NCBI GenBank assembly: GCA_028554795.2
Contig: CM068828.1
Location: forward strand, 5,859,720 to 5,923,719
Origin: Sinohyriopsis cumingii
Lineage: Eukaryota > Mollusca > Bivalvia > Unionida > Unionidae
Direction: 5' to 3'
DNA length: 64,000 nt
This document shows, piece after piece, positions 4,611-50,015 of the stretch (its first letter is position 1; each line of letters begins with the position of its first letter). The translations under genes were made by a program, and so were the position numbers. The notes under the pieces were generated by a model that made no database searches, was not told the origin of the DNA, and saw only the letters and a list, made by a program, of their open reading frames with translations.

Positions 4611-5149
4611 GACAAGATATAAATGAAGATGCACAGACTTGAAAATACTGGTGATCTGGAGCAAACGCAACAATGTTTGACCAGACGAAAATCATAAAAT
4701 TGCGACATGAACTGTCTCTTAACTTCTCCCATATTTAAGTCATACAAATGTGTGATAGCTCCTTAGAAAGGAAACTTATGCTCCTAGATTACTGAAATAT
4801 TTCACTGCAAATGCAAATACTACTAAAACATCAAAGGCTATGTTTGCAACTGTGATTTCATCCGTTACAAACATTGTCTGTTGCATGTTTAGCAAATGAA
4901 TCCCGAATAGGAGCATAGCATTTTTAGAACTATGACTCATTTTAGTTTAAAGCTTGCTCTCGGTGTTTTTTGTAAAGGCGTAAGGAATATAGTACAGAAG
5001 AGTAAAATGTGTTGAATATATTAATAACTCTTGCAACTCAATCGTCCCAGGGATGCAAGCTTGTGCACTTTATTCCTGAACCATGAACATGAATCAGTGC
5101 CAGTCTGATGACTTCCGTGGGGGAATCTGTTAATCGTCGATAACTTACT

Positions 5150-5880
5150 GATTCTCACATACACTAAAATGAAAGACCTTAAATTAGCATATTATGACGA
5201 TTTTCTTCGTTGAAATGTACCTGTACCTGGAAAATTCAAAAGCTTGCTAGACAAGAATAAATTTGTGCTGATACATTCCTGGACGAGAAAATCTAAATCA
5301 ACCGGATTAGTAACTAATATGATAATAAACGGGGACATTCTTGTGATGCCCATATGGGAAGTCTTCCGATAATCTTTCATCCGATATCTCAGGCATGTGA
5401 GATCGTTCCGGAAACCAAACCTGCTTTTTGAGCTTTATATGTAACAATGGCTTCAGCGACTGCAAGATCTGTCAGCATATTTGGATCAAGCATACAACGC
5501 AGTAAATCTATTGAAACCCATCCAAATTTATTGCTGAATACTTGAATGGTTTCATCTTGATGCACACTTTTTAAATTAAAATGTAGCTAAACTAATGAAC
5601 GTTGTGGGAAAACTTGAACAATAGTATCTCTGCAAATCCAGTAAGATCAAAACCGGGAAAAGAACCATTGACACACGTTTTAAGTCATGTGTAGGATGAC
5701 CCAGTAGGATGAAGTAAGGTTTACAGACACCAAGAAATAAAGTAACAGAATACAATGATGCCCTATCTACGCTTATAACTTCATCGACGGAATAATTAGT
5801 GTTCCAAAGAACCCCGTGCCCGTATTCATCACATGTCATTGAACATCTCCAAACACCCAATGTATTAGGTATTGAATCAT
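5150..5880 (-). pseudogene. relic Polinton family B DNA polymerase
   Basis: Minus-strand relic of the same polymerase type as 36852-39413. The best block (about 5690-5850) reads EYGHG.LWNT followed by a motif A region with ISVD and then the GHPT block. Further down come a LLR.MLD block with VAEAI..Y near 5410-5510 and a VDLDFLV stretch near 5265-5310 that matches the region after motif B. Order is collinear with the intact gene, and frameshifts and stops interrupt it. Motif C and the helicase part are not visible. It lies beyond the ATPase relic, as in the intact element but with the phospholipase, integrase and helicase missing. Confidence 0.8.
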
Positions 5881-6400
5881 TATTTATGGCTCTGCAAAAT
5901 TAGGCGTCACTAACTAGGGCTTAAATAATTTGCAACGATATCATACATGTCGGACGAAGATTTTAGTGCTTCTTTTCGTAGCTCATCATGGAAATATGTT
6001 TGATACCAATCTTCACAAGGTAATAACAAAATGATCAGCGTGGTTAAAAAAAACCCATCAATATCAATTAACTTTACCGGTACATGATAACGCACGCTAA
6101 TATTAGCAATGGCATGTTAAACATCACTATCATATAAAATCTGATTGTGTGCTTTTCGGGAAATTTTTTTTCACGCATGTGGATTATGTTCAATAAGTTC
6201 AGTCATTGTACCAGCATTTTTGTATTTACCGTAACAATACATCGTGATTAGATATATGACAGCACTTTCCGACGCGGCAACGTCTCGAGTTTTGTGCCAT
6301 TTCGGTGAACCTCTTTCGCCAATTAGTGCTTTTAGACAATATTTTCCCTTCGTTACTAGTTGTTTGCAATCTCCCCGTTTCGTTAGGGATCGAACAATTG
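5881..6400. other. no recognised gene
   Basis: Short minus-strand open frames of 60-80 codons only. None is recognised. The stretch could contain the eroded N-terminal half of the polymerase relic next to it. Confidence 0.3.
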
Positions 6401-15298: not shown

Positions 15299-16545
15299 AG
15301 TGTGCTGGAGATATGTGTGGATGTCAGGTGTGCTGGAGGTGTGTGTGGATGTTAGGTGTGCTGGAGGTGTGTGTGGATGTCAGGTGTGCTGTAGGTGTGT
15401 GTGGATGTCAGGTGTGCTGGAGGTGTGTGTGGATGTCAGGTGTGCTGGAGGTGTGTGTGGATGTCAGGTGTACTGCAGGTGTGTGTGGATGTTAGGTGTG
15501 CTGGAGGTGTGTGTGGATGTCAGGTGTGCTGGAGGTGTGTGTGTGGATGTCAGGTGTGCTGGAGGTGTGTGTGTGGATGTCAGGTGTGCTGGAGGTGTGT
15601 GTGTATGTCAGGTGTGCTGGAGGTGTGTGTGGATGTTAGGTGTGTTAGAGGTCTGTGTGGATGTTAGGTGTGCTGGAGGTGTGTGTGTATGTCAGGTGTA
15701 CTGTATGTGTATGTGGATGACAGGTGTGCTGGAGGTGTGTGTCGATGTCAGGTGTGCTGGAGGTGTGTGTGGATGTTAGGTGTGCTTTAGGTGTGTGTGG
15801 ATGTCATGTGTGCTGGAGGTGTGTGTGGATGTCAGGTGTGCTGTATGTGTGTGTGGATGTCAGGTGTGCTGTATGTGTGTGTATGTCAGGTGTGCTGGAG
15901 GTGTGTGTGAATGTTAGGTGTGTTAGATGTGTGTGTGAATGTATGTGTGCTGTATGTGTGTGTGTATGTCAGGTGTACTGTATGTGTATGTGTATGTCAG
16001 GTGTGCTGGAGGTGTGTGTGAATGTTACGTGTGCTGCAGGTGTGTGTGAATGTTATGTGTGCTGTATGTGTGTGTGAATGTTATGTGTCATGTATGTGTG
16101 TGTGGATGTTAGGTGTGATGTATGTGTGTGTGTATGTCAAGTGTGCTGTAGGTGTGTGTGGATGTTAGGTGTGCTGGAGGTGTGTGTGGATGTTAGGTGT
16201 GCTGGAAGTGTGTGTGTATGTCAGGTGTGCTGTACGTGTGTGTGTATGTTATGTGTGCTGTATGTGCGTGTGTATGTTATGTGTTCTGCAGGTGTGTGTG
16301 AATGTTATGTGTGCTGTATGTGCGTGTGTATGTTATGTGTCCTGTAAGTGTGTGTGTATGTTATGTGTGCTGTATGTGTGTGAATGTCATGTGTGCTGTA
16401 TGTGTGTGTGTATGTTAGGCGTGCTGTATGTGTGTGTATGTTAGGTGTGCTGGATGTGTGTGTATGTTAGGCGTGCTGTATGTGTGTTTGGATGTCAGCT
16501 GTGCTGGAGGTGTGTGTGGATGTCAGGTGTGCTGGAGGTGTGTGT
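15299..16545. repeat. 28-bp GT-rich minisatellite
   Basis: Roughly 45 units of about 26-30 bp built on GTGTGCTGGAGGTGTGTGTG plus GATGTCAG, with a strong G/T strand asymmetry. Units vary gradually from left to right (GGAGG to GTATG types). Several plus-strand frames stay open because no unit carries a stop in those frames; the resulting Cys/Val-rich repeats are not evidence of a gene. Confidence 0.95.
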
Positions 16546-33462: not shown

Positions 33463-33467
33463 ACACG
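33463..33467. repeat. target-site duplication, left (ACACG)
   Basis: ACACG immediately before the left terminal repeat and again at 50011-50015 after the right one. Six bases do not match (AACACG versus ACACGG), so the duplication is 5 bp. Confidence 0.85.
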
Positions 33468-33738
33468 AGCAGCAGAGAGACTGAGCCCACCAACTATTCC
33501 GTCCAACAGAACCTTCTATCGAGAACACTCTTGATAGTGGGTCTTATTTCACAAAATAAACCCTCTATTCAGAAAACTATGATAAATAAGCCTTCTCTGC
33601 TGACTAGAAGAGTTATTTCATGAAAAGTAACTAACTATAAAAATACTTCTTGACTCCGGGGTCTACTAGACGAAATACTTGGTGGCTCAGTCTCTCTGCT
33701 GCTAGAAATGTAAATATTTTTAATCCTTCAGGATTTCT
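33468..33738. repeat. left terminal inverted repeat
   Basis: Matches the reverse complement of 49750-50010. The TIR is itself an imperfect palindrome: its first ~25 bp (AGCAGCAGAGAGACTGAGCC plus ACCAA) reappear inverted at 33681-33706, and a diverged inverted match continues toward the centre. So each TIR is two inverted ~118-bp arms. Confidence 0.93.
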
Positions 33739-33782: not shown

Positions 33783-34412
33783 TCATGTAAATTTATCGTC
33801 ACAAATCCGTGTGGTTTTTGCCTGAGCACGACTAAAGAAATTTCTGAATTTATTTATGTCCATGTCACCGCTGCACCAAGTTCGATGAATATTTTGTAAC
33901 GTGTGTGCGTCAACGCCGTTAAATACCGCGAGAACGTTACAGTTATCTCTGATCACTTTCGGGATTTGTGTATACCGTTGAGTTACATAAATCACATCGG
34001 TGTTTTTATGCCTGCCGCTTGAAAATATCCTGGCAGGGTTTGATTGTTTGTCCAGCATGATATCATCGTACACGACTAAATTATTAATACTCCCATCAAT
34101 ATCATCGATACTCGGTGCTTCATCAATATCAGTTATAAAATCAATAACATCTTCTTCACTTATCGATTTTGCACTTTCGTTAAAATCTTTTAATACCTGA
34201 TAACATCGCTGATCGTCCACTGATGGTGCTATCAAATATAATTTATCCCACTTCATCCACTTCATTATTAAATTAAGTAACAACTGTGTCTTACCCGACC
34301 CAGATGGACCTATACTAATCATTCGAATTGAATTTGGTAGCACTGAGTTATGTTTAATTGGCTCTCGTCGCTTTGACGCAGAAAAGTCAGTGATCTCCAT
34401 TAGATATATCAT
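33783..34412 (-). CDS. packaging ATPase (FtsK/HerA, A32-like)
   Basis: DNA-packaging ATPase expected to pump the genome into capsids in the cell's assembly site. The 209-residue frame is intact. The Walker A motif GPSGSGKT is at residues 35-42 and a Walker B strand VVYDD near residues 113-117. A VIYVTQ strand with the sensor-like glutamine follows. Length is usual for Polinton ATPases. It is the first gene inside the left terminal repeat and is divergent from the zinc-ribbon/PLA2 gene with only nine bases between the two start codons. The first ATG is used, with an in-frame second ATG four codons later (M5) as an alternative. A dead relative lies at 4085-4610. Confidence 0.93.
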   Translation of the reverse strand: MIYLMEITDFSASKRREPIKHNSVLPNSIRMISIGPSGSGKTQLLLNLIMKWMKWDKLYLIAPSVDDQRCYQVLKDFNESAKSISEEDVIDFITDIDEAPSIDDIDGSINNLVVYDDIMLDKQSNPARIFSSGRHKNTDVIYVTQRYTQIPKVIRDNCNVLAVFNGVDAHTLQNIHRTWCSGDMDINKFRNFFSRAQAKTTRICDDKFT

Positions 34413-34421
34413 AAAATAAAT
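34413..34421. promoter_or_regulatory. 9-bp divergent start region
   Basis: Only AAAATAAAT separates the ATG of the ATPase (minus) from the ATG of the zinc-ribbon/PLA2 gene (plus). Any promoter elements must therefore overlap coding sequence or act right at the start codons. The sequence fits the A/T-rich TAAA(T)-before-ATG pattern seen at most genes of this element. Confidence 0.5.
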
Positions 34422-34924
34422 ATGAATTTATATTGTGTGAAATGCCGAGCACATACCCCAACTGCGGATATGACAACAATTACAACAAAAAATAATCGAC
34501 AAGCGCTTATAGGCAAGTGTGAACGATGCGGTATAAAAAAGTTTAAATTTATCTTAAAAAAAAGCGAGGGGGTGATATCGCAGCCAAGTTAGGAAAATTA
34601 CCAGGGGCTCCGTGGGCTAAATACCCAGGAGAAAAACATCTTCCAGGATATAATTACTGCGGTCCAGGAACCCGACTTGATATCAGACTTGATGCTCAGG
34701 ATCAGCCAAATCCAGGTGAGTATCCGATAAACGCTATTGATAAGGCGTGTCATGCTCATGATGTAGCTTACCGAAGCAAGGATTTGCAACAGCGCCATCT
34801 CGCGGACGTGAAATTAATTCACGCGTTAAATGCCATCCCTGATAAATCTTTCAAGGAGAGGTTAGCATCTTGGTTAATAAAAACTGCAATGAAATCTAAG
34901 CTTGTATTAGGCGCTGGTAATTAA
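34422..34924 (+). CDS. zinc-ribbon + phospholipase A2 protein (in two frames)
   Basis: Two adjacent frames that together resemble the Polinton/adintovirus phospholipase A2, related to the parvovirus VP1 PLA2 used to breach endosomal membranes. Part one (34422-34592, 56 codons) carries a zinc ribbon with YCVKC and CERC. Part two has no ATG and runs in the -1 frame to 34924. It has the calcium loop motif YNYCGPGT and the catalytic His-Asp pair in CHAHDVAY. The frames meet at a run of eight A (34556-34563) that is a classic slippery heptamer in the zero frame. Either -1 ribosomal frameshifting joins them, or one base was lost in the genome or in sequencing. The zinc-ribbon part ends shortly after the run if no shift occurs. 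I am sure of the domains and unsure of the mechanism. Confidence 0.85.
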
Positions 34925-34929
34925 TTATA

Positions 34930-35877
34930 ATGGAGTCGATTTATTATTCCCCAAGCGGATATTGGAGAGGTAGCGCAGCAATTAGTAAACTCGCTGAAGC
35001 AGCAAAAGTTACAAAAGTTACTGCTAAAAATTGGTTATCCCGACAGGCAATATGGCAAATTTATCTACCGCGCCCTAAACAAATTCACTTTGCACATTTT
35101 GATGTTAGTGTGCCAAATGAGGTTCATCAGGCTGATCTATTATTTCTGCCACATGATACTATATGAAGACGTACATACAAGTACGCGTTAACTGTAGTTG
35201 ATGTTGCAAGTAGATACAAAGATGCTGAACCGTTAACGACTAAAACAGCATCTGAGGTTGCTTCTGCGTTTAAACGAATTTATCAACGTGGTCTACGTTG
35301 GCCAAATCTATTACAAGTTGATCCTGGCAAAGAATTTCAGGGTGCAGTATCATCGTTGATGAAACAACATAACGTCACCATCAGACGAGGACATACTGAA
35401 ATTCACCGTGATCAGGCAATTGTTGAGCGATTCAATCGAACACTTGCTGAGCGGTTATTTGGATATCAATACACGAAGGAATTCATTCAGGATACGAGAT
35501 CGCGCGAATGGGTTGCAAGATTACCAAACGTGATAGCTGCACTAAATAGCGAGATCACACGAACAACCAACATGAAACCTGTCATCGCAATCACAAAAAG
35601 ATATATACCCGTACGACGTGATTCTTCAGCGCAGCCAATACTGGGCAATGTTACAGTTAGATATTTATATGAACCGGGTGAACTTGAAGGTGGTAAACGA
35701 AGAGCGACTGATCCTATCTGGAGTGTTACCACACACAAAATAACCACCGTGACAAGATCTACTGGTAGACCAGCAATCTACAGGTTGGATTCAACTGCTC
35801 CTCAACGTGGATTCACACGTGAGCAATTACAGGTGATTCCTGAGGATACGCAATTACCGTCAAAATCACTTCAGTGA
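34930..35877 (+). pseudogene. retroviral-type integrase, internal TGA
   Basis: DDE integrase (rve fold) that would insert the element by cutting and joining its ends. One plus-strand frame from the ATG at 34930 to 35877 is broken by a single TGA at 35164-35166. The first catalytic Asp lies in HQADLLFL just before the stop; the second is in QVDPGKEF and the Glu in AIVERFNR, with the usual D-to-E spacing of about 34-35 residues. A basic, aromatic C-terminal domain with VRYLYEPGE follows. The N-terminal helical region is present (AISKLAEAAKV). The stop splits the active site, so without readthrough the enzyme is dead. A C-to-T change in a CGA arginine codon would explain the TGA. It starts five bases after the PLA2 stop. 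Confidence 0.93.
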
Positions 35878-35887
35878 TTTCGATCAC

Positions 35888-36160
35888 TCAACTAGCACCA
35901 AGGGTGCCAGCACCCCGACGTCGATTACACTCAAGACAGGTCAACATGATATTATCACGTGTATGACCGCGACTGTTATCTTTTCTGTCTACGGTAAATT
36001 GTCTTGAATTTTTATTCGAATACTGCCACAGCATTATACAATTACAGCTCGCGCAATGATTATTCTGCTGTTGTTTTAACTCAATAATAAAGTCAACATC
36101 AAGGTCGAAATCGCGATTATTTTTTTTGTCACTCTGTTTGTAACCGGCGAGTTTTTTTTC
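35888..36160 (-). CDS. HNH-like treble-clef segment, no own start
   Basis: An open minus-strand frame without ATG that encodes two CxxC pairs (CASC and CLEC) around VDRKDNSRGHTRDNIML. This layout matches an HNH/endonuclease VII-like treble clef in which VDR replaces the usual DH. It lies immediately downstream of the polymerase-helicase. A coding-like stretch in a third frame (about 36090-36210) bridges the two, and the frames change at a run of eight A (36152-36159 on the opposite strand). I infer that it was the C-terminus of the polymerase-helicase polyprotein or a small downstream gene. It has not been called as functional. Confidence 0.6.
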   Translation of the reverse strand, partial: EKKLAGYKQSDKKNNRDFDLDVDFIIELKQQQNNHCASCNCIMLWQYSNKNSRQFTVDRKDNSRGHTRDNIMLTCLECNRRRGAGTLGAS

Positions 36161-36201: not shown

Positions 36202-36855
36202 TCAGCTATTGAATCTTCCAAGACAAATCCTTCGCAGTTGAGATATTCTTCTGACTCTGGACACCGCTAGGTAGACTAAGTTTGACCATTCGATTCGATC
36301 ATCAACAATCCAGACATTTGTATCTGAAATAGTCAGTCCTTGAGAAGAATGAATGATCATTGCGTATCCTAGCGTCCACGGGGATTTATTCATTTTTAGT
36401 GCATCTTTGACAGCATTAATATCAACTAACACAATATCATTCAATACTAAATTCTGTTTCTCTGTTTTCCCTGGTATATCAACATCTATATTCTGTAACC
36501 GCGTATCAGCTGGTCTATAACATAACGGCGTTGGCAGCATTGGAAACTTTTCTTGTTGTAATTGAAATAACTGTTGTTGAAGTGTGTCTCTGATTATCTT
36601 TCTACTTGCTACTATCAAATCGTCTGGTTTCCACACATCCCAAAAGTCGCTCATCGAAGTTTCAGGAATCATCTCGCGCACAATTTCACATTGAATTTTA
36701 TTCGGTTGTAATCTGATTAATGTTTTAAATTCTTTCAACGTTGCATCAAGTGCTCTATGATCATCAGACACTTCTTCGCAATAATCAACAAAATCTTTTA
36801 ACCAATCATGTGGAGATGCGCCGACAAAGGAGGTGGTTGACCGTGATCGCCTCAC
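36202..36855 (-). pseudogene. SF1 helicase C-terminal half (separated by frame break)
   Basis: The second half of the helicase fused to the polymerase. The frame contains PHDWLKD, a long middle region, then GYAMIIHSSQGLTI (SF1 motif V-like) and VYLAVSR (motif VI with its arginine). The motif III-like block GDHGQPPP lies just upstream but in the polymerase frame, after the TGA at 36852-36854; the frames then change at a short T run near 36825-36830. Thus one stop and one 1-nt break separate it from the N-terminal part. The ATG at 36855 is probably an accident of the frame. The coding style and collinearity leave little doubt that both halves were one protein. Confidence 0.85.
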
Positions 36856-39413
36856 ATAACGACTGCAGTATTTTTCGTTAGCAGCCTATCAAGAAATGTT
36901 TTTAATGTATCTAACGGTACCGTACATATCTCATCCCAAATTATTTTCTCGGGAATATATTTTGTTCCCATTCGATCTGACGTCCACACACCGCCGCTGT
37001 ATTTGAAAAAGCTGTGATAAGTACAAGAATTGACTCCTCGCTGTTTCATCTCTCTGGCTAGTATGTGTGTAGGTGTTAGCACAATCATATCCGATTTTCC
37101 AAATAATTCAATCGCTCGAGTTGTTTTACCAGACCCGCCCGGCCCGTTTAAATGAACGGTTTTGTGTCTAGTGATTGGATCATACACAGATGGTGCGTTC
37201 GACATTTCTGACATTTCTGATAATTTACAATAATCATCCTTAATTGCAACATCAGCGGATTCACAATATTCGTGTAACATCTCCGCTTTTATTCTCCACG
37301 AACTCCATGATTCGTCGTTGCTTGTAAAACGAGCCAATAATTCTGAATATTTTTTATTGATATAAAATGAATCCGTTGCAACTCTAACTGCGGTGTCAGG
37401 AAATCGATTTATCATTGATAGCAAATTTAAAGAAACATAACCCAGCATTGAAGATCTTAAATGTGTGTACTGAGACGATTCTCCGTCGATATAACTTACA
37501 ATTGTGCCCAACTTTCTTCCGTCGGACAAGAACACATCTTCCCCATTACAAAATATATTTCTCGCAACAGCGTGAGCAATTATAAAATCCAATTCAGCAT
37601 CATCGATAATCAGTCGCGAGTGATGCATTTTATGATCAAATGCTGCACCCTGAGTAAATTTACCGATTATTCTTCGTCCAAGATCTTTTGCTGCTTTTTC
37701 ACTATTACCGAGTTTGATCTTGAGAATTTTAGGAGCCTCACTGACAATGACATCCATCGGGGTATTTGGACTCTCTCGTGCATACTCGCCGATAACTTCA
37801 TCTACACTGACACGCTCCGGTGTTGGCAACCAAACTAAGGTCTGTGGTTGATATGATATGATTGCTTCACTGACAGTCAACGATACCAGTATTCGGCTGT
37901 CAAGCATATATCGCAATAACACTATTGGTACCCAGCGCTTTTCACTGAAGTGTCTGCCAAACCAAACATAACAGCACGGATGAAGCCCTTTAGCAAATTC
38001 AAACGAAGTCACACGAGCAAATCCCGTCAGGTCAAAGTCGGGTAAAGGACCGTTTATAGCAACTCGTGTCATCGAGTTCGTGGGATGTCCAAATCGCTTA
38101 AAGTATTCGCTGCACTCGCCGTTCCCGAGAAAGCTTCCTGGGTAGCAAGCAATCATATCCACGGAAATCATGTCGCGGTAGTCATACCGGGTATTCCACA
38201 ACCCGCCATGCCCATACTCGACACAACTCAATTGTATATCCGAAAGAAACTGACTTCGAGTTGGTCTCCACGAATTTCTTTCTCTGCCGGCGTGAGCAGC
38301 AACACTTGGAATTGTAAAACAATTAACTAATAACTGCTCAATGTTGTCTTCGGTTTTCGCATATTTCTCTGCGAGTTTTTTCATTTGTTGTTGCAACGAC
38401 TCCGTCCGGTATAATTCCCCGTTGGGTTTTACAAATTGATCACATTCGGAATCTTCGGAACTCTTAAATAGCCACACTGACACAGGGTCTGTTTTATTCA
38501 GCGTGTAAATAGCATCAAATATATTTCCGGAATAAAGTTTGACAACACGATCTCGTGGAAATATTGTAACTGCATCAGTCCAGGCATGAGAGTTATGATC
38601 AATAATTTCAATCGGTGATCCTGACTTTTTATAATGCTTCGAACTATATAATATTTCCCCGGTTAGTGTTTTTACTGTTATTGAAAATTTTAATTTACTT
38701 GATAGCACAGCAACATCATTTATTGTTGCCCCAGTATCCTTGACTTGCTCAGCCCATGCTGTTATTTTTTCACGTCGCAGATCAGTTAAACCGTTTCCTC
38801 GTTTTGCGTTTTTAAAATGTTCCATTACTCGCTCGGCTACACAATTCAGCGTAGAAACGCTTGCGTTTCCAGAAAATCCTTCGGATTTTGATGACGTCTT
38901 CATCGGGGTGAGTTTATCAATTTTTGTTTTTTTTACCAGATAGATTTCATAAACGACTGCGGTTACAGGATACGCTCGAGCGTAATATGGTTTCTCAATC
39001 CCGGTCAACATTCCTGGTTTACAACCACTACTTAACAGAATGGTCTTTCCGTTAGCAAGAACAGGGTCGAGTTTGTCACGGATAATCCATTCATCGGAAT
39101 CTGTTTGCACAATAAATTTTATTCTGAAAACATATTTCTTACTGTGTTCATCACTTTGATGAATATCAAATAGATAATCAATAATTGTTTTTGCTCGGGC
39201 ATCAGTCATTGTAGCATCGATGACTTCGTCGGTGTCAACAAAGTCAGTGTTACGGATAATTTTAAATGACGACCATACATGAGAAGCGCCGTCGTCGCGG
39301 AATTCTTTTTTACCCTCCCTGATAATATTAAATAGATCAGTTAGATTCCGCCGTCGTGAGTCTCTGTTTAGCCTATCAAGATCGAATCTCCCAGCGCCAA
39401 ATAAACCCTTCAT
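36852..39413 (-). CDS. family B DNA polymerase fused to SF1 helicase (N-terminal part)
   Basis: An 853-codon frame, the largest in the window. It would copy the element's DNA. Polymerase motif A is SVDMIACYPGS (about residues 416-426), motif B is the RRIIGKF region (about 578) and motif C is VATDSFYI (about 676), with T-D instead of D-T-D. From about residue 750 the protein turns into an SF1 helicase: Walker A GPGGSGKTT (about 756) and Walker B IIWDEIC (about 823). The frame ends at a TGA (36852-36854) just before motif III, and the helicase continues in 36202-36855. Usual Polinton polymerases lack a helicase tail, so this is a distinct architecture. The N-terminal ~400 residues are poorly conserved; I cannot place exonuclease motifs with confidence. 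A dead relative lies at 5150-5880. Confidence 0.92.
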   Translation of the reverse strand: MKGLFGAGRFDLDRLNRDSRRRNLTDLFNIIREGKKEFRDDGASHVWSSFKIIRNTDFVDTDEVIDATMTDARAKTIIDYLFDIHQSDEHSKKYVFRIKFIVQTDSDEWIIRDKLDPVLANGKTILLSSGCKPGMLTGIEKPYYARAYPVTAVVYEIYLVKKTKIDKLTPMKTSSKSEGFSGNASVSTLNCVAERVMEHFKNAKRGNGLTDLRREKITAWAEQVKDTGATINDVAVLSSKLKFSITVKTLTGEILYSSKHYKKSGSPIEIIDHNSHAWTDAVTIFPRDRVVKLYSGNIFDAIYTLNKTDPVSVWLFKSSEDSECDQFVKPNGELYRTESLQQQMKKLAEKYAKTEDNIEQLLVNCFTIPSVAAHAGRERNSWRPTRSQFLSDIQLSCVEYGHGGLWNTRYDYRDMISVDMIACYPGSFLGNGECSEYFKRFGHPTNSMTRVAINGPLPDFDLTGFARVTSFEFAKGLHPCCYVWFGRHFSEKRWVPIVLLRYMLDSRILVSLTVSEAIISYQPQTLVWLPTPERVSVDEVIGEYARESPNTPMDVIVSEAPKILKIKLGNSEKAAKDLGRRIIGKFTQGAAFDHKMHHSRLIIDDAELDFIIAHAVARNIFCNGEDVFLSDGRKLGTIVSYIDGESSQYTHLRSSMLGYVSLNLLSMINRFPDTAVRVATDSFYINKKYSELLARFTSNDESWSSWRIKAEMLHEYCESADVAIKDDYCKLSEMSEMSNAPSVYDPITRHKTVHLNGPGGSGKTTRAIELFGKSDMIVLTPTHILAREMKQRGVNSCTYHSFFKYSGGVWTSDRMGTKYIPEKIIWDEICTVPLDTLKTFLDRLLTKNTAVVM

Positions 39414-39446
39414 ATTATATTTAAGACAAATATTTAAATAAGAAAT

Positions 39447-39832
<386 letters not shown>

Positions 39833-39857: not shown

Positions 39858-40373
39858 ATGAATCAAGAATTTGTCTCACATCCAACTATCGAGAATTACG
39901 AAGCATCACGTGAGGGAATAGTGAGACATTGCAGAGCGAAAAAACCAGTTGGTGTTATTGATAATTCTGGTTATCTAAGATTTACTGTTGGGAAAAAGAA
40001 GTATCTTAATCACAGGGTCGTGTACGAGTGTTTCTTTGGAGAGATCAAAGACGGTCTTGTAATTGATCACATTGATGGACAGAAACTTGATAATAATTTA
40101 TCCAATCTGAGAGCTGTGACGCAGAGCGAAAATTGTAGGGCTGGTAATACTGGCTGTAACAATAAAAGAGCCAAGAAGGTTGTTTCCATAAATTTAAATA
40201 CAAATGAAGAAATAATATTTCATTCGATGAATGCAGCCAGTAGGCATTTTGGTATTTGTGTGGCTTCAGGACGAAGAGTCGCAGAAAAAATAGATAAATC
40301 CGCGTTGTCAAAAACATATAATAATCAGAAGATGATATTTTCTTATGGAGATAACTCTGCAGCGACTGTGTGA
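39858..40373 (+). CDS. HNH homing endonuclease with NUMOD domains
   Basis: A 171-residue intact frame. The N-terminus has a NUMOD4-like block (IENYEASREGIVRH). The HNH nuclease core is LVIDHIDGQKLDNNLSNLR with an upstream HRVVYECF helix and a following RAVTQSENCR block. The C-terminal part (KKVVSINL...SMNAASRHFGI) is a NUMOD1-type DNA-binding module. This is the standard layout of free-standing HNH homing endonucleases of phages and large DNA viruses. It would cut DNA site-specifically; whether it spreads itself or serves the element is open. It is the best-preserved gene near a set of broken ones. Start: ATAAATG at 39858. Confidence 0.92.
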   Translation: MNQEFVSHPTIENYEASREGIVRHCRAKKPVGVIDNSGYLRFTVGKKKYLNHRVVYECFFGEIKDGLVIDHIDGQKLDNNLSNLRAVTQSENCRAGNTGCNNKRAKKVVSINLNTNEEIIFHSMNAASRHFGICVASGRRVAEKIDKSALSKTYNNQKMIFSYGDNSAATV

Positions 40374-44551: not shown

Positions 44552-45555
44552 TTACGCGGTAACCAATTGAGGCGTTTCAGCTACAAATTCCAAACAGCAC
44601 CAGTAAGATGTTGCGGTTAATTTCTTGTCTGCGGCTTCCAGTATAAATGTTTCTTCGGTTTCCTTGTTTAGTATGATAGTCACAACCCCGGAATATTTGT
44701 CAGTGGAATGTCTCCAGGGATATGTTGTGAAGATCTCAAATTTAGCGGCACTGAATACAGTCTATACACGCCAGTGGCTGCTGCTGTATATTTGATAGTA
44801 TTATTTTGTCGGGACCATGTTGCAAATCCAGATGATTCCGTGTACACTATGTTGTTGATATGCCCGGGGGTAACTCCAGTGGGGACTTTAATCAGACTGG
44901 TTTTACTAACGATCTCAGGAATTCCCGATACGATATCGGGCTGTGTTTGTTTGATCGTGTCAATGTTGGTCTTGATTTCAGAAAGTTTCATGTCGATGAC
45001 TGGAGGAGCCCCAAAGAACTTATCCACGGCCACATCAGTTTTTGCGAAGTTTCTTCGAAGTCTTGTAAACGCGCCCACGTGAACATCATACTCTGCCCGC
45101 AACGTGGTTAGTTTACTGTCAACGGTGTCTACATATTGTTTGTTTGCGCCATCTTCCGGGGATGTTGGAATCGCTAACGCGGTTATTTTGTTACCGTTCA
45201 TGCTGAGTTCACCTGTCATTGTATCACCGGTCTTCGCTACACGTTCCCCTGCGACTTTTCGTGCATCATCTCGAAGCGCCGCGATTGATATCAGCGAATC
45301 TCTGATTCTGCCGCTGTCAGTGAATACAACGATGTTGTCCGTGGTAGCTCCAATAACCCTGCGAATTATGTCATTCCACTTAATGTTACTGGTTTTTAGC
45401 TTGCAATGTCGATCTTGAAAAATTACAACCTCATCTGGGTCTATCCCGGTTAACGTTAAAAGATTATCAATTTCATCTTTGGTCACATATTTTGATAAAT
45501 CGATATTTTTTTTTTCTTCCTTTGTTCTACTTGCTCTTCCGTAAATATCAACCAT
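44552..45555 (-). pseudogene. fibre/spike-like protein with phage tail-fibre motif
   Basis: A frame of 291 codons from 45555 to 44680, continuing in the -1 frame to a TAA at 44552-44554 after a break near 44690-44700. The middle holds GDTMTGELSMNGNKITALA followed by PEDGANKQYVD, the repeat typical of trimeric phage tail fibres. Helical regions flank it (LTTLRAEYDVHVG). The extended end makes a neat junction with the next gene, whose ATG is 9 bases away. It fits a receptor-binding spike, but specificity cannot be read from sequence. Confidence 0.8.
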
Positions 45556-45586
45556 TATTAGTTATGGGGTTGTTTAAATTTGGAAA

Positions 45587-46045
45587 TCACATCTGTGATT
45601 TCAACGTGTATTCATGCACGACTTTGTGAGGAGAACTCGCTGATTTCGAGATCGCATCAAGAACATTTAATACTTCACGGCCACATATCGGAGGATCGGT
45701 CAGTGTTTGTGTTGGCAACGTTGAGTACCAAACCGCTGCTGACGTTGTTAACGGGGATACATATCGAAGGAATTCAACTGGCGGTGCTAGCCAGTACGAA
45801 TCAAAATAGATAATTCCACGTGGATCGATCGCGTAAGCAACCCAGTGAGTTCCTGGACCATCGCTGTTATCGAGATTAATAATTCCTGTTTCTGGATTAT
45901 TCGGTCGTGCTGGTAATTGATCTCGCATAAAGACTCCTCTGAAGTGTTTTACGCGTAATCGTTTAGCGGCATCAAGTAAATCAAAGTTGGACGCTGGAAG
46001 TGAAACAGAAACACCTTGTGTTTTCAAAACCTTTTTGGGTACCAT
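45587..46045 (-). CDS. adenain-like cysteine protease (Ulp1 fold)
   Basis: Maturation protease expected to cleave capsid proteins inside the particle. The 152-residue frame is intact. The catalytic His is H67 in GTHWVAY, the Asp D82 in IYFDSYW, the oxyanion Gln Q113 and the Cys C121 in PPICG. FRGVFMRDQLP and INLDNSDGPG precede the His as in adenovirus and Polinton proteases. The length is slightly short. Unlike most genes here, its ATG is not preceded by a TAAA-type motif. GG-containing sites in the pVI-like neighbour are plausible targets. Confidence 0.93.
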   Translation of the reverse strand: MVPKKVLKTQGVSVSLPASNFDLLDAAKRLRVKHFRGVFMRDQLPARPNNPETGIINLDNSDGPGTHWVAYAIDPRGIIYFDSYWLAPPVEFLRYVSPLTTSAAVWYSTLPTQTLTDPPICGREVLNVLDAISKSASSPHKVVHEYTLKSQM

Positions 46046-46067
46046 GATGGCGGAGTTCCTGGAAGTC

Positions 46068-46694
46068 TTAGGCCGGCCCCCCTCTTTTTTTGTATCCAGA
46101 TCCTGTTTGTTGTTTCAATGCTGACAATACGTCAGGCCGGGAAAGTAGTTGGGGAAGCAGTAGTGGTGCAGGTAAAGGTGCTCCAGCTCTACCGAGTGCT
46201 CCAGCTCTATCGAGTGCTCCAGCTCTACCGAGTGCTCCAACTCTACGGAGTGCTGAACTACCGAGTGCTGCAGCTGTAAGTGGTGCAAGTGCTGATAGTA
46301 TATTTCCTCCTCGTTTCTTATATTTTCCTCCAGTGGCTTTCTTTAGTGCCATTCCAGCTGCGGTTCCAACTGCTCCTAACGCCGCAGCTTTCGCTACTGC
46401 TGGTGCTGCTGCGGCAATCAACGCTGGTATTGCTGCAAGAAACGGAAATATTCCACCGGATTTAATCATATCATGGACAGCTGCGGCACTAAAATCAAGT
46501 CTGATTCCTTTTCCTGCTGCGTTAGCCTTGGAAATTTGATTAAGTTGTGTTTGAGTAACCGATAACTTATTTTGACCACCACTAAGTTGTTCATGTTTAA
46601 GTGTTATTGACGTTCCTGACGCTGATGCTTGCTTTGATATTAATTTCCTGATCTGACCAGGAGTCAGAGTGACATTAACATGACTGTATGACAT
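46068..46694 (-). CDS. pVI-like minor capsid protein
   Basis: A 208-residue intact frame. The N-terminal region (VTLTPGQIRKLISKQ...ITLKHEQLSGG) is the conserved start of a Polinton structural protein. A hydrophobic Ala-rich stretch (about residues 85-120) follows, with KSGGIF and KKRGGN sites that resemble adenain cleavage sites. Then comes a GALGRAGAL-type repeat made by a short DNA repeat (46180-46260), and a C-terminal KKRGG tail. The context next to protease and major capsid supports a membrane-active, protease-processed internal capsid protein. The start is TTAAATAAAATG. Confidence 0.85.
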   Translation of the reverse strand: MSYSHVNVTLTPGQIRKLISKQASASGTSITLKHEQLSGGQNKLSVTQTQLNQISKANAAGKGIRLDFSAAAVHDMIKSGGIFPFLAAIPALIAAAAPAVAKAAALGAVGTAAGMALKKATGGKYKKRGGNILSALAPLTAAALGSSALRRVGALGRAGALDRAGALGRAGAPLPAPLLLPQLLSRPDVLSALKQQTGSGYKKRGGPA

Positions 46695-46742: not shown

Positions 46743-48125
46743 TTACATATTTTCCACTGGTGCATCAACGAGTATCATTCGGCCGCCAGCACCTTCAAGC
46801 AACATTGCTTTATCGGAAAGTATGACCGCGATTGCTCTGTAATTAGCTATAACTCCTGCGTCTCTATTCACGGTAGCCCGAAAGTGAATATCAACGACAG
46901 ACTGTCTGGTTAAATCAAGATGCTCCAGCGAGAAGTAATAGATTGGATAATGAGATATAAAATCCAATTGCGATATTTGCAAACCAGTATCGATATTTAG
47001 ATCACGCGCTAGATATTTTGTCAATCGTTGATATGCACGTGCAACATGGTTGTTAGCAAAATTTAGCATTATGTTCTCGGATGGTTCTTGATGTCCGTTT
47101 ATTCTCAGAGAAACGTCAGTGATACCAAGTTGATCAAATATCATATGCGAACGTGTTTCATTACCCACCCGTGCAGCATCCTGAAGAGCAATGAAAATAT
47201 GTCGCGGCACGGCAACCCCCTGCTGTGATGCTATATGCCATGTAAATAAACCATTGATGTTACTTTGAATACTATCTGTGGTTGTTGTAAGCCACGATAG
47301 CAGCACTTTACCACCTTGATCCATAAAAGAAAGCAGTCGCTGTTCTTCAGTAATTGCGGGAGTCATTACCGGCATCCACAGTGATAGTTTTGTTATCTTT
47401 ACCTTGCCAGCGTCACCTAGAGGTCGCCATAGCGCATCATTGTCGTCGGCTTTTCTAACAAGCACGACTGTATGTTTTGCTCCAAAAATCACCTTTCTGA
47501 CATCTCTGCAAAATCCAAAGATATGTGACAGCGGAATGGCACATGAAAAATTTCTACGATTACCTTTCAACATTTGTCTACGTGCAGCGAAACCTAAATT
47601 AAATTCTGTATTAGCACCATGAACCACCGGCCACACATCAGCGTCAGCGTTATTGGCAAAGTTTCTTGGTCGTCTAATATTGTACTGATCACTGTTAGGA
47701 TGATTAGAAGTGTCCTTGGCAAACATCATTGATGGACCAGATGATCTTGTATAATCATCAGAATATCTTGCTAGACCAATTATTGTTGTAGCAACATCGA
47801 CATCCTTCTGAATCGATTCGATATTTTTTCCATCAATCATGTAGATAGCACTATCAAACAAGGCCATAATTCCGTTATTGACAAAGCCGATTTTAACATC
47901 AGGGAGGTATTCTGCATCATCTTTTTTTATAATTTCTCCTTCTACTTCAATAAATGCTTCAGCGGGCAGGAAATATCTACTTGTATCCTGAACCTGAAGT
48001 TCAATTCGTTATCGTTTATTTGGCTCTCGTGCGTCATAAGAATAATACTGATAATCACGCACTGATTCATTTTTAAGGACCGGTTCGTCTATGTCAAATG
48101 CTGGGTCGGATTCCCGTTTAAACAT
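46743..48125 (-). pseudogene. major capsid protein (double jelly roll), internal TAA
   Basis: The hexon-like major capsid protein. A single frame of 460 codons from the ATG at 48125 (context TAATAAAATG) to 46743, broken only by a TAA at codon 39 (48009-48011). Typical blocks: an N-terminal PAFDID, FIEVEGE, NGIMALFDS, the GLARYSDDY/PSMMF loop, IPLSHIFGF, LWMPVMTP, HIFIALQ, INGHQEPSEN, YPIYYFSLEH and the C-terminal ILSDKAM. The next in-frame ATG (47867) would lose the first beta strands, so a restart would hardly give capsid. TAA from CAA is one C-to-T change. It lies between pVI-like and pX-like genes. A dead relative lies at 486-1650. Confidence 0.94.
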
Positions 48126-49749: not shown

Positions 49750-50010
49750 AGAAATCCTAGAATATTTACATTTGAGCATCAGAGAGACTAGGCCACCAAG
49801 TGTTTCGTCTAGTAGACCCCGGAGCCAAGAAGTATTTTTATAGTTAGTTATTTTTCATGAAATAACTCTTCTAGTCAGCAGAGAAGGCTTATTTATCATA
49901 GTTTTTTGAATAGAGGGTTTAGTTTGTGAAATAAGACCCTCTATCAAGAGTGTTCTCGATAGAAGGTTCTGTTGGACGGAATAGTTGGTGGGCTCAGTCT
50001 CTCTGCTGCT
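49750..50010. repeat. right terminal inverted repeat
   Basis: Reverse complement of 33468-33738 with about nine substitutions in the outer ~236 bp and a small gap near the inner end. Ends in CTCAGTCTCTCTGCTGCT at 50010 and is followed by the duplication ACACG (50011-50015). Confidence 0.93.
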
Positions 50011-50015
50011 ACACG
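50011..50015. repeat. target-site duplication, right (ACACG)
   Basis: Second copy of the 5-bp duplication that flanks the Polinton. Confidence 0.85.

What the first reader, a model, noticed from the sequence alone, without database searches (positions are those of the whole stretch)
36202..39413. Family B polymerase fused to an SF1 helicase
One frame carries polymerase motifs A-C followed by Walker A GPGGSGKTT and Walker B IIWDEIC; motif III and the V/VI motifs follow after a stop and a frame break. Canonical Polinton polymerases have no helicase tail. Motif A (DMIACYPGS) and motif C (ATDS) are also atypical. A self-contained polymerase-helicase would alter how the element replicates. The same polymerase type occurs as a relic at 5.15-5.88 kb, so the lineage has been in this genome for a long time.
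Basis: partly seen in the sequence, partly recalled or inferred. Interest (0 to 1): 0.8.

Follow-up and report, generated by a model that had tools for sequence, protein, structure and literature searches.

The report
Fused polymerase-helicase of a provirus
The window holds a decayed copy of a virus-like mobile element whose large replication protein joins a DNA polymerase to a helicase; this kind of fusion is already described, mostly from single-celled hosts, but the same large genome carries dozens of almost identical, unbroken copies of a sister gene, so that branch multiplied there very recently.

Summary

New here: the window's own 2.9-Gb genome holds at least 39 copies of a sister gene, 38 without a stop, differing by 0-8 of 3516 nt, every variant a singleton; 20 of 20 copies examined have perfect 5-bp target duplications. 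That is a very recent burst and makes it testable whether the supposedly inactivated polymerase works. In the open-licence papers I searched I saw no report of this replicase in animals; many papers were not held.

The parts
33463..33467 (.). left target-site duplication, 5 bp
   Evidence: identical to 50011-50015 by reading the flanks; 5 bp is also the length in 20 of 20 sister copies examined
33468..33703 (+). left terminal inverted repeat
   Evidence: 236 nt, 96% complementary to 49775-50010
33783..34427 (-). A32-like packaging ATPase
   Evidence: PF04665 E 6.6e-14
34547..34924 (+). phospholipase A2-like domain
   Evidence: PF08398 E 5.4e-13; that this is the parvovirus type is recalled
34921..35877 (+). 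retroviral-type integrase, two ORFs in one frame parted by a stop
   Evidence: rve PF00665 E 2.2e-5, below its cut-off, on 35167-35877; no family on 34921-35166; an unbroken 329-aa frame in sister copies matches both
35888..36160 (-). HNH domain, C-terminal end of the polymerase-helicase gene, in another frame in this copy
   Evidence: PF01844 E 0.0018, below its cut-off; tblastn with P0003 residues 1089-1172 at 81%
36202..36885 (-). second half of the SF1B helicase (motifs V 36331-36351 and VI 36253-36273)
   Evidence: 80% identical over 208 columns to an unbroken sister copy
36852..39413 (-). N-terminal region, vOTU-like region, protein-primed PolB palm and first half of the helicase
   Evidence: 68% identical over 865 columns to an unbroken sister copy
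38586..38849 (-). vOTU-like Cys (LNCVA) to His (HNSHAW) stretch
   Evidence: Cys in 44 of 44 and His in 45 of 47 sequences that have the column
38133..38159 (-). polymerase motif A, DMIACYPGS
   Evidence: catalytic Asp in 53 of 53
37647..37670 (-). polymerase motif B, IIGKFTQG
   Evidence: Lys in 54 of 55
37362..37379 (-). polymerase motif C, ATDSFY, first Asp replaced by Ala
   Evidence: Ala in 53 of 55, second Asp in 55 of 55
37122..37145 (-). helicase Walker A, GPGGSGKT
36930..36944 (-). helicase Walker B, IIWDE
39434..39555 (.). (AT)n microsatellite just upstream of the gene
39858..40373 (+). free-standing HNH_3 endonuclease, weak NUMOD1 match
   Evidence: PF13392 E 4e-16; NUMOD1 E 7e-4, below its cut-off; HNH_3 also beside the gene in a sister copy
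44680..45561 (-). fibre-like protein
   Evidence: phrog_2710 tail fibre E 2.5e-7
45587..46114 (-). possible adenovirus-type maturation protease
   Evidence: PF00770 E 0.049, below its cut-off
46743..48008 (-). double jelly-roll major capsid protein, its N-terminal part in another frame
   Evidence: PF21738 E 3.8e-19; ORF list against the frame of a sister copy
49775..50010 (-). right terminal inverted repeat
50011..50015 (.). right target-site duplication, 5 bp
5027..6287 (-). relic of a second member of the same polymerase family
   Evidence: tblastn with 64 of 69 homologues; 0 matches in the reversed window; 6054-6287 rests on one weak match

Best explanation
The gene is a pPolB-S1H replicase (Tlr1-like helicase) of a Polinton-like provirus: N-terminal region, vOTU-like protease region, protein-primed family B palm without an evident proofreading site, SF1B helicase of the Pif1/RecD/Dda kind, and a C-terminal HNH nuclease. 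Shown: the palm and helicase folds, their order in one protein, TIRs, integrase, ATPase and capsid genes, 5-bp target duplications, decay of the window copy, and a very recent multiplication of a sister branch in the same genome. Inferred: replication starts by protein priming at the linear TIR ends; the palm copies the strand while the fused helicase opens the duplex ahead, so that one protein is both polymerase and unwinding engine; the vOTU region cuts off the priming part; the integrase inserts the linear product with a 5-bp staggered cut.
Against: No Tlr1, algal-virus or transpoviron reference sequence was reached, so membership rests on architecture, motifs and fold, not on a tree. The vOTU fold was only weakly matched (OTU chains at E 0.3-0.6). 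No terminal-protein domain was identified. The viral fold search also lists two poxvirus proteins that are not polymerases by name. At least 5.5 kb of the interior of the young copies was not read, so another replication gene there is not excluded; no second polymerase was found among the window-copy ORFs scanned. The copies were picked by protein score, so 38 of 39 without a stop and the excess of silent changes (18 of 39 against 10.6 expected) are biased upward. Other frames are shortened in at least 3 of 10 young copies.
Confidence: 0.8

Rival explanations
1. The palm is catalytically dead and only the helicase (and perhaps priming) part works; the elements are copied by a host polymerase or by a canonical Polinton polymerase acting in trans.
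For: The first Asp of motif C is Ala in 53 of 55; an earlier proposal called this palm inactive (as told). Whether canonical pPolB genes exist in this genome was not tested (searches did not complete).
Against: Motif A Asp 53 of 53 and the second motif C Asp 55 of 55 are kept; the 2024 preprint notes that polymerases of mavirus, mitochondrial plasmids, pipolins and some archaea lack the same Asp and are active; the branch multiplied very recently.
Confidence: 0.25
2. The fusion arose independently of Tlr1-like helicases, from an animal or fungal Polinton polymerase that captured a Pif1/RecD-like helicase.
Against: Same order, same motif C loss, vOTU residues and C-terminal HNH as published for Tlr1-like proteins; divergent proteins P0070 and P0071 with palm-like and SF1 parts link outward.
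Confidence: 0.15
3. Two neighbouring genes, not one fused gene; the apparent fusion is a frame accident in the window.
For: The window copy is broken inside the helicase.
Against: 57 of 69 homologues carry palm motif C and Walker A in one protein; 38 of 39 copies in the same genome run 1172 codons without a stop.
Confidence: 0.01
4. The near-identical copies are assembly artefacts or contamination by a free virus.
For: Differences of 0-8 nt among 39 copies are very small.
Against: They lie on 22 contigs, 33 of 39 on contigs over 70 Mb, with a different perfect 5-bp duplication at each of 20 sites examined.
Confidence: 0.03

Closest known systems
pPolB-S1H, 'Tlr1-like helicase' of the Tetrahymena Tlr1 element, PLVs and transpovirons (PMC11071308: passages and section 10 read)
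   Same: protein-primed palm then SF1 helicase in one chain; vOTU Cys/His; no exonuclease; first Asp of motif C lost; C-terminal GIY-YIG or HNH
   Different: carried here by elements in a 2.9-Gb genome whose nearest named relative is a freshwater mussel; N-terminal domain not matched; no tree with the published members made
Polintons/Mavericks (PMC4028283, PMC8097293: passages)
   Same: TIRs, rve integrase, packaging ATPase, double jelly-roll capsid
   Different: no canonical polymerase with exonuclease; 5-bp duplications instead of the 6 bp reported for intact vertebrate Mavericks
Tlr elements (PMC4028283, PMC3671162: passages)
   Same: rve integrase, packaging ATPase, capsid proteins and an SF1 helicase protein instead of canonical pPolB
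   Different: HNH instead of GIY-YIG after the helicase; a possible adenain-like protease, which is reported absent in Tlr; PLA2 and fibre-like genes not compared
Helicase SF1-pPolB of Oxyrrhis OmPLV (PMC12721341: passages)
   Same: SF1 helicase and protein-primed polymerase in one chain
   Different: there the helicase is N-terminal and the exonuclease is kept; judged an independent fusion by its authors
Adintoviruses (PMC11071296: passages)
   Same: animal-associated, rve integrase, adenovirus-like capsid genes
   Different: their replicase is a PolB with an OTU-like domain; the passages I saw mention no helicase fusion to it

Membership tests
pPolB-S1H (Tlr1-like helicase) | palm of the protein-primed PolB kind | tested here: met
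pPolB-S1H (Tlr1-like helicase) | SF1 helicase C-terminal to the palm in one reading frame | tested here: met
   57 of 69 homologues by motif; RecD2/Pif1 fold in the model of P0003; 38 stop-free sister copies; broken in the window copy itself
pPolB-S1H (Tlr1-like helicase) | first Asp of motif C lost, second kept | tested here: met
   Ala 53 of 55, Asp 55 of 55
pPolB-S1H (Tlr1-like helicase) | vOTU-like domain with catalytic Cys and His before the palm | tested here: inconclusive
   Cys 44 of 44, His 45 of 47, but OTU chains only at E 0.3-0.6
pPolB-S1H (Tlr1-like helicase) | no catalytic exonuclease | tested here: met
   only two conserved acidic positions, not in a DxE pattern, among residues 262-400 of P0003; part of this stretch still aligns with phi29 from its residue 52 on, so a remnant fold is possible
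pPolB-S1H (Tlr1-like helicase) | common tree with Tlr1, PLV and transpoviron proteins | not tested
   no reference sequence reached
pPolB-S1H (Tlr1-like helicase) | terminal-protein domain | not tested
   N-terminal alpha/beta region of middling confidence, not modelled or searched on its own
Polinton/Maverick | TIRs and target-site duplications | tested here: met
   duplication of 5 bp, not 6
Polinton/Maverick | rve integrase, packaging ATPase, double jelly-roll capsid | tested here: met
Polinton/Maverick | adenovirus-type protease | tested here: inconclusive
   PF00770 E 0.049, under its cut-off
Polinton/Maverick | canonical pPolB with exonuclease | tested here: not met
   the polymerase present lacks conserved exonuclease residues and carries a helicase

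The most novel reading that the evidence does not exclude
An animal provirus lineage that multiplied very recently, and may still be multiplying, with a one-chain protein-primed polymerase-helicase as its only replicase: the palm thought to be inactivated is a working, non-proofreading polymerase whose fidelity or processivity comes from the fused helicase, and these elements are a third replicase class of animal and fungal Polintons beside alpha and beta adintoviruses.
Probability: 0.45. Interest if true: 0.75.

Novelty: new member of a known kind. Interest (0 to 1): 0.5.

Why it matters
It has been argued both ways whether the palm of Tlr1-like helicases makes DNA. A branch with 38 stop-free, near-identical copies in one genome, with perfect ends and target duplications wherever both ends were examined, is circumstantial evidence that the whole replication system worked until very recently, and it gives a defined protein to assay. 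It also extends this replicase to genomes that include a mussel, a sea slug and mycorrhizal fungi, where automatic annotation misses it: in 7 of 7 homologues scanned Pfam finds the helicase but no polymerase.

Tried and rejected
Pfam does not recognise the palm, and a sequence search of solved structures with the polymerase piece found nothing, with the second piece only weak Pif1 matches; only a good model of the palm alone settled the fold. The model of the whole homologue P0003 was poor outside the helicase (mean pLDDT 60.7) and its fold search was filled by helicases; absence of other folds there means nothing. IMG/VR scans with P0001, A2, P0070 and the capsid ORF gave no confirmed relative. 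One contig binned as a Diapherotrites archaeon encodes a broken relative (L001); probably misbinned eukaryotic DNA, not followed. The phage collection gave two weak matches to the helicase end. A search from the divergent P0070 returned one further relative. A silent-change excess among the 39 copies (binomial p 0.0085) was not used as proof of selection, because the copies had been chosen by protein score. In the tree of the palm 6 of 56 rows were dropped for low coverage. A programmed frameshift was rejected, since uninterrupted homologues read straight through and the integrase and capsid genes of this copy are broken too. In one search the labels for HNH residues and one motif B label fell on wrong columns and are not used. 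In one search the TIR of the tenth copy could not be measured.

Full report
What is there. On the minus strand, 36852-39434 is one open frame (first Met at 39413) with, in order, a vOTU-like Cys/His pair, PolB motifs A, B and C, Walker A and Walker B; 36202-36885 carries helicase motifs V and VI in another frame, and 35888-36160 an HNH domain in a third. A stop and a frame break fall on helicase motif III (reading). Homologue P0003 (1176 aa, one frame, 68% identical) runs over all three pieces in order. By tblastn 69 of 69 homologues match the place, 49 in all three frames; the reversed window gives none. So this is one gene, broken in this copy.

The element. Inverted repeats of 236 nt, 96% complementary, lie at 33468-33703 and 49775-50010, flanked by the same five bases. 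Between them are an A32-like ATPase, a phospholipase A2-like domain, an rve integrase with one in-frame stop, a free HNH_3 endonuclease, a fibre-like gene, a weak adenain-like match and a double jelly-roll capsid gene whose start lies in another frame. At least three genes of this copy (replicase, integrase, capsid) are broken. Other ORFs of the element have no assignment.

Atypical motifs. In a 56-row alignment (55 of the 69 homologues and the window piece) the motif A Asp is kept in 53 of 53, the second motif C Asp in 55 of 55, and the first motif C position is Ala in 53 of 55. Spacing within motif A is canonical (recalled). The oddities are therefore family traits. Between the vOTU His and motif A only two acidic positions are conserved, so no exonuclease active site is evident; part of the stretch still aligns with phi29.

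How widespread. Two searches returned 35 and 57 proteins, a third one more, 69 in all; each scored only the best candidates. Of these 57 carry palm motif C followed by Walker A in one protein, 44 also motif V, 33 of them at 1000 aa or more; 4 have Walker A without motif C, 4 the reverse, and 4 neither, several being fragments. Named sources are a freshwater mussel (Sinanodonta woodiana, contig of 143 Mb), a sea slug (Elysia crispata) and mycorrhizal fungi (Gigaspora, Racocetra, Diversispora); most are unnamed. The window copy groups with P0003-P0006 and the mussel sequence (FastTree support 1.0).

The same genome. The window is a piece of a 2.905-Gb assembly. A search with P0003 scored 39 places (a lower bound, 39 of 38186 first-look candidates): 38 without a stop, one with a TAG. 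The 39 genes are all 3516 nt and differ by 0-8 nt per pair (mean 2.0, 0.057%); 26 haplotypes, the commonest in 14 copies; 39 variants, each seen once: 18 silent, 20 changing, 1 stop. Motifs B, C, Walker A, Walker B, III and VI are present in 39 of 39, the motif A and motif V patterns in 38 of 39. This branch is 68% (first piece) and 80% (second piece) identical to the window copy, so the window holds another, decayed branch.

Ends. In 10 of 10 copies sequence is shared up to sharp ends about 10.0-10.1 kb upstream of the gene and 2.5 kb downstream, about 16.2 kb in all. In 20 of 20 copies with both ends fetched, a perfect 5-bp duplication, different at each site, flanks the repeats, and no 6-bp one. 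The repeats are about 299 nt with 0 mismatches in 8 of 9 copies measured and 1 in the ninth. A 329-aa integrase frame is open in 10 of 10; in the 3.1-kb upstream pieces a 344-aa frame is open in 9 of 10, and shortened frames in the capsid-side pieces mean that at least 3 of the 10 copies are not intact throughout. The star-like singletons point to one recent burst from one source; no absolute date is given because no mutation rate was measured. The choice of copies by protein score favours unbroken ones.

How it works. Shown: one protein with polymerase and helicase folds, in elements with integrase, capsid genes and TIRs that inserted at many sites with 5-bp duplications. Inferred: protein-primed start at the TIR ends, strand displacement driven by the fused helicase, release of the primer protein by the vOTU region, integration of the linear product. 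The 2024 preprint predicts polymerase activity for this type and suggests that helicase gain goes with exonuclease loss (PMC11071308; passages, section 10).

What is known. The fusion is the published Tlr1-like helicase or pPolB-S1H (also told in PMC12721341). GIY-YIG and HNH domains fused to such helicases are published for PLVs. Duplications of 5-6 bp are published for PLVs (PMC12220804, passages) and of 6 bp for intact vertebrate Mavericks (PMC8097293, passages). Bellas et al. [quoted passage not shown] PLV-like elements associated with insect poxviruses are mentioned in print; I did not check their replicase. In the listings of my paper searches and the passages opened I saw no report of this replicase in molluscs or other animals; these cover open-licence papers only, several listed papers (such as two bivalve transposon surveys) were not opened, and the key 2016 paper was not held.

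Verdict. Observation confirmed; a known replicase kind in a host range I did not find described, with an unusually young and abundant branch in the same genome.

Noticed in passing
own genome of the window, 39 places: Near-identical stop-free copies of a sister gene at many sites; perfect 5-bp duplications at 20 of 20 examined: a very recent burst.
   Followed up: yes
window 34547-34924 +: Phospholipase A2-like domain (PF08398) inside the element.
   Followed up: no
window 39858-40373 +: Free-standing HNH_3 endonuclease beside a replicase that has its own HNH domain; also present in a sister copy.
   Followed up: partly
window 44680-45561 -: Fibre-like protein with matches to phage tail-fibre families.
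   Followed up: no
window 5027-6287 -: Relic of another member of the polymerase family, by score not specifically close to the window copy.
   Followed up: partly
L001 1-3152: Broken relative on a contig binned as a Diapherotrites archaeon; probably misbinned eukaryotic DNA.
   Followed up: partly
P0070, residues from about 1400 on: Divergent 1727-aa palm-SF1 protein with a long extra C-terminal region of unknown kind.
   Followed up: no
window 39434-39555: (AT)n microsatellite directly upstream of the polymerase gene, opening a spurious frame extension.
   Followed up: no
window 15300-15779 +: Long G/T-rich repeat-like stretch read as an ORF.
   Followed up: no
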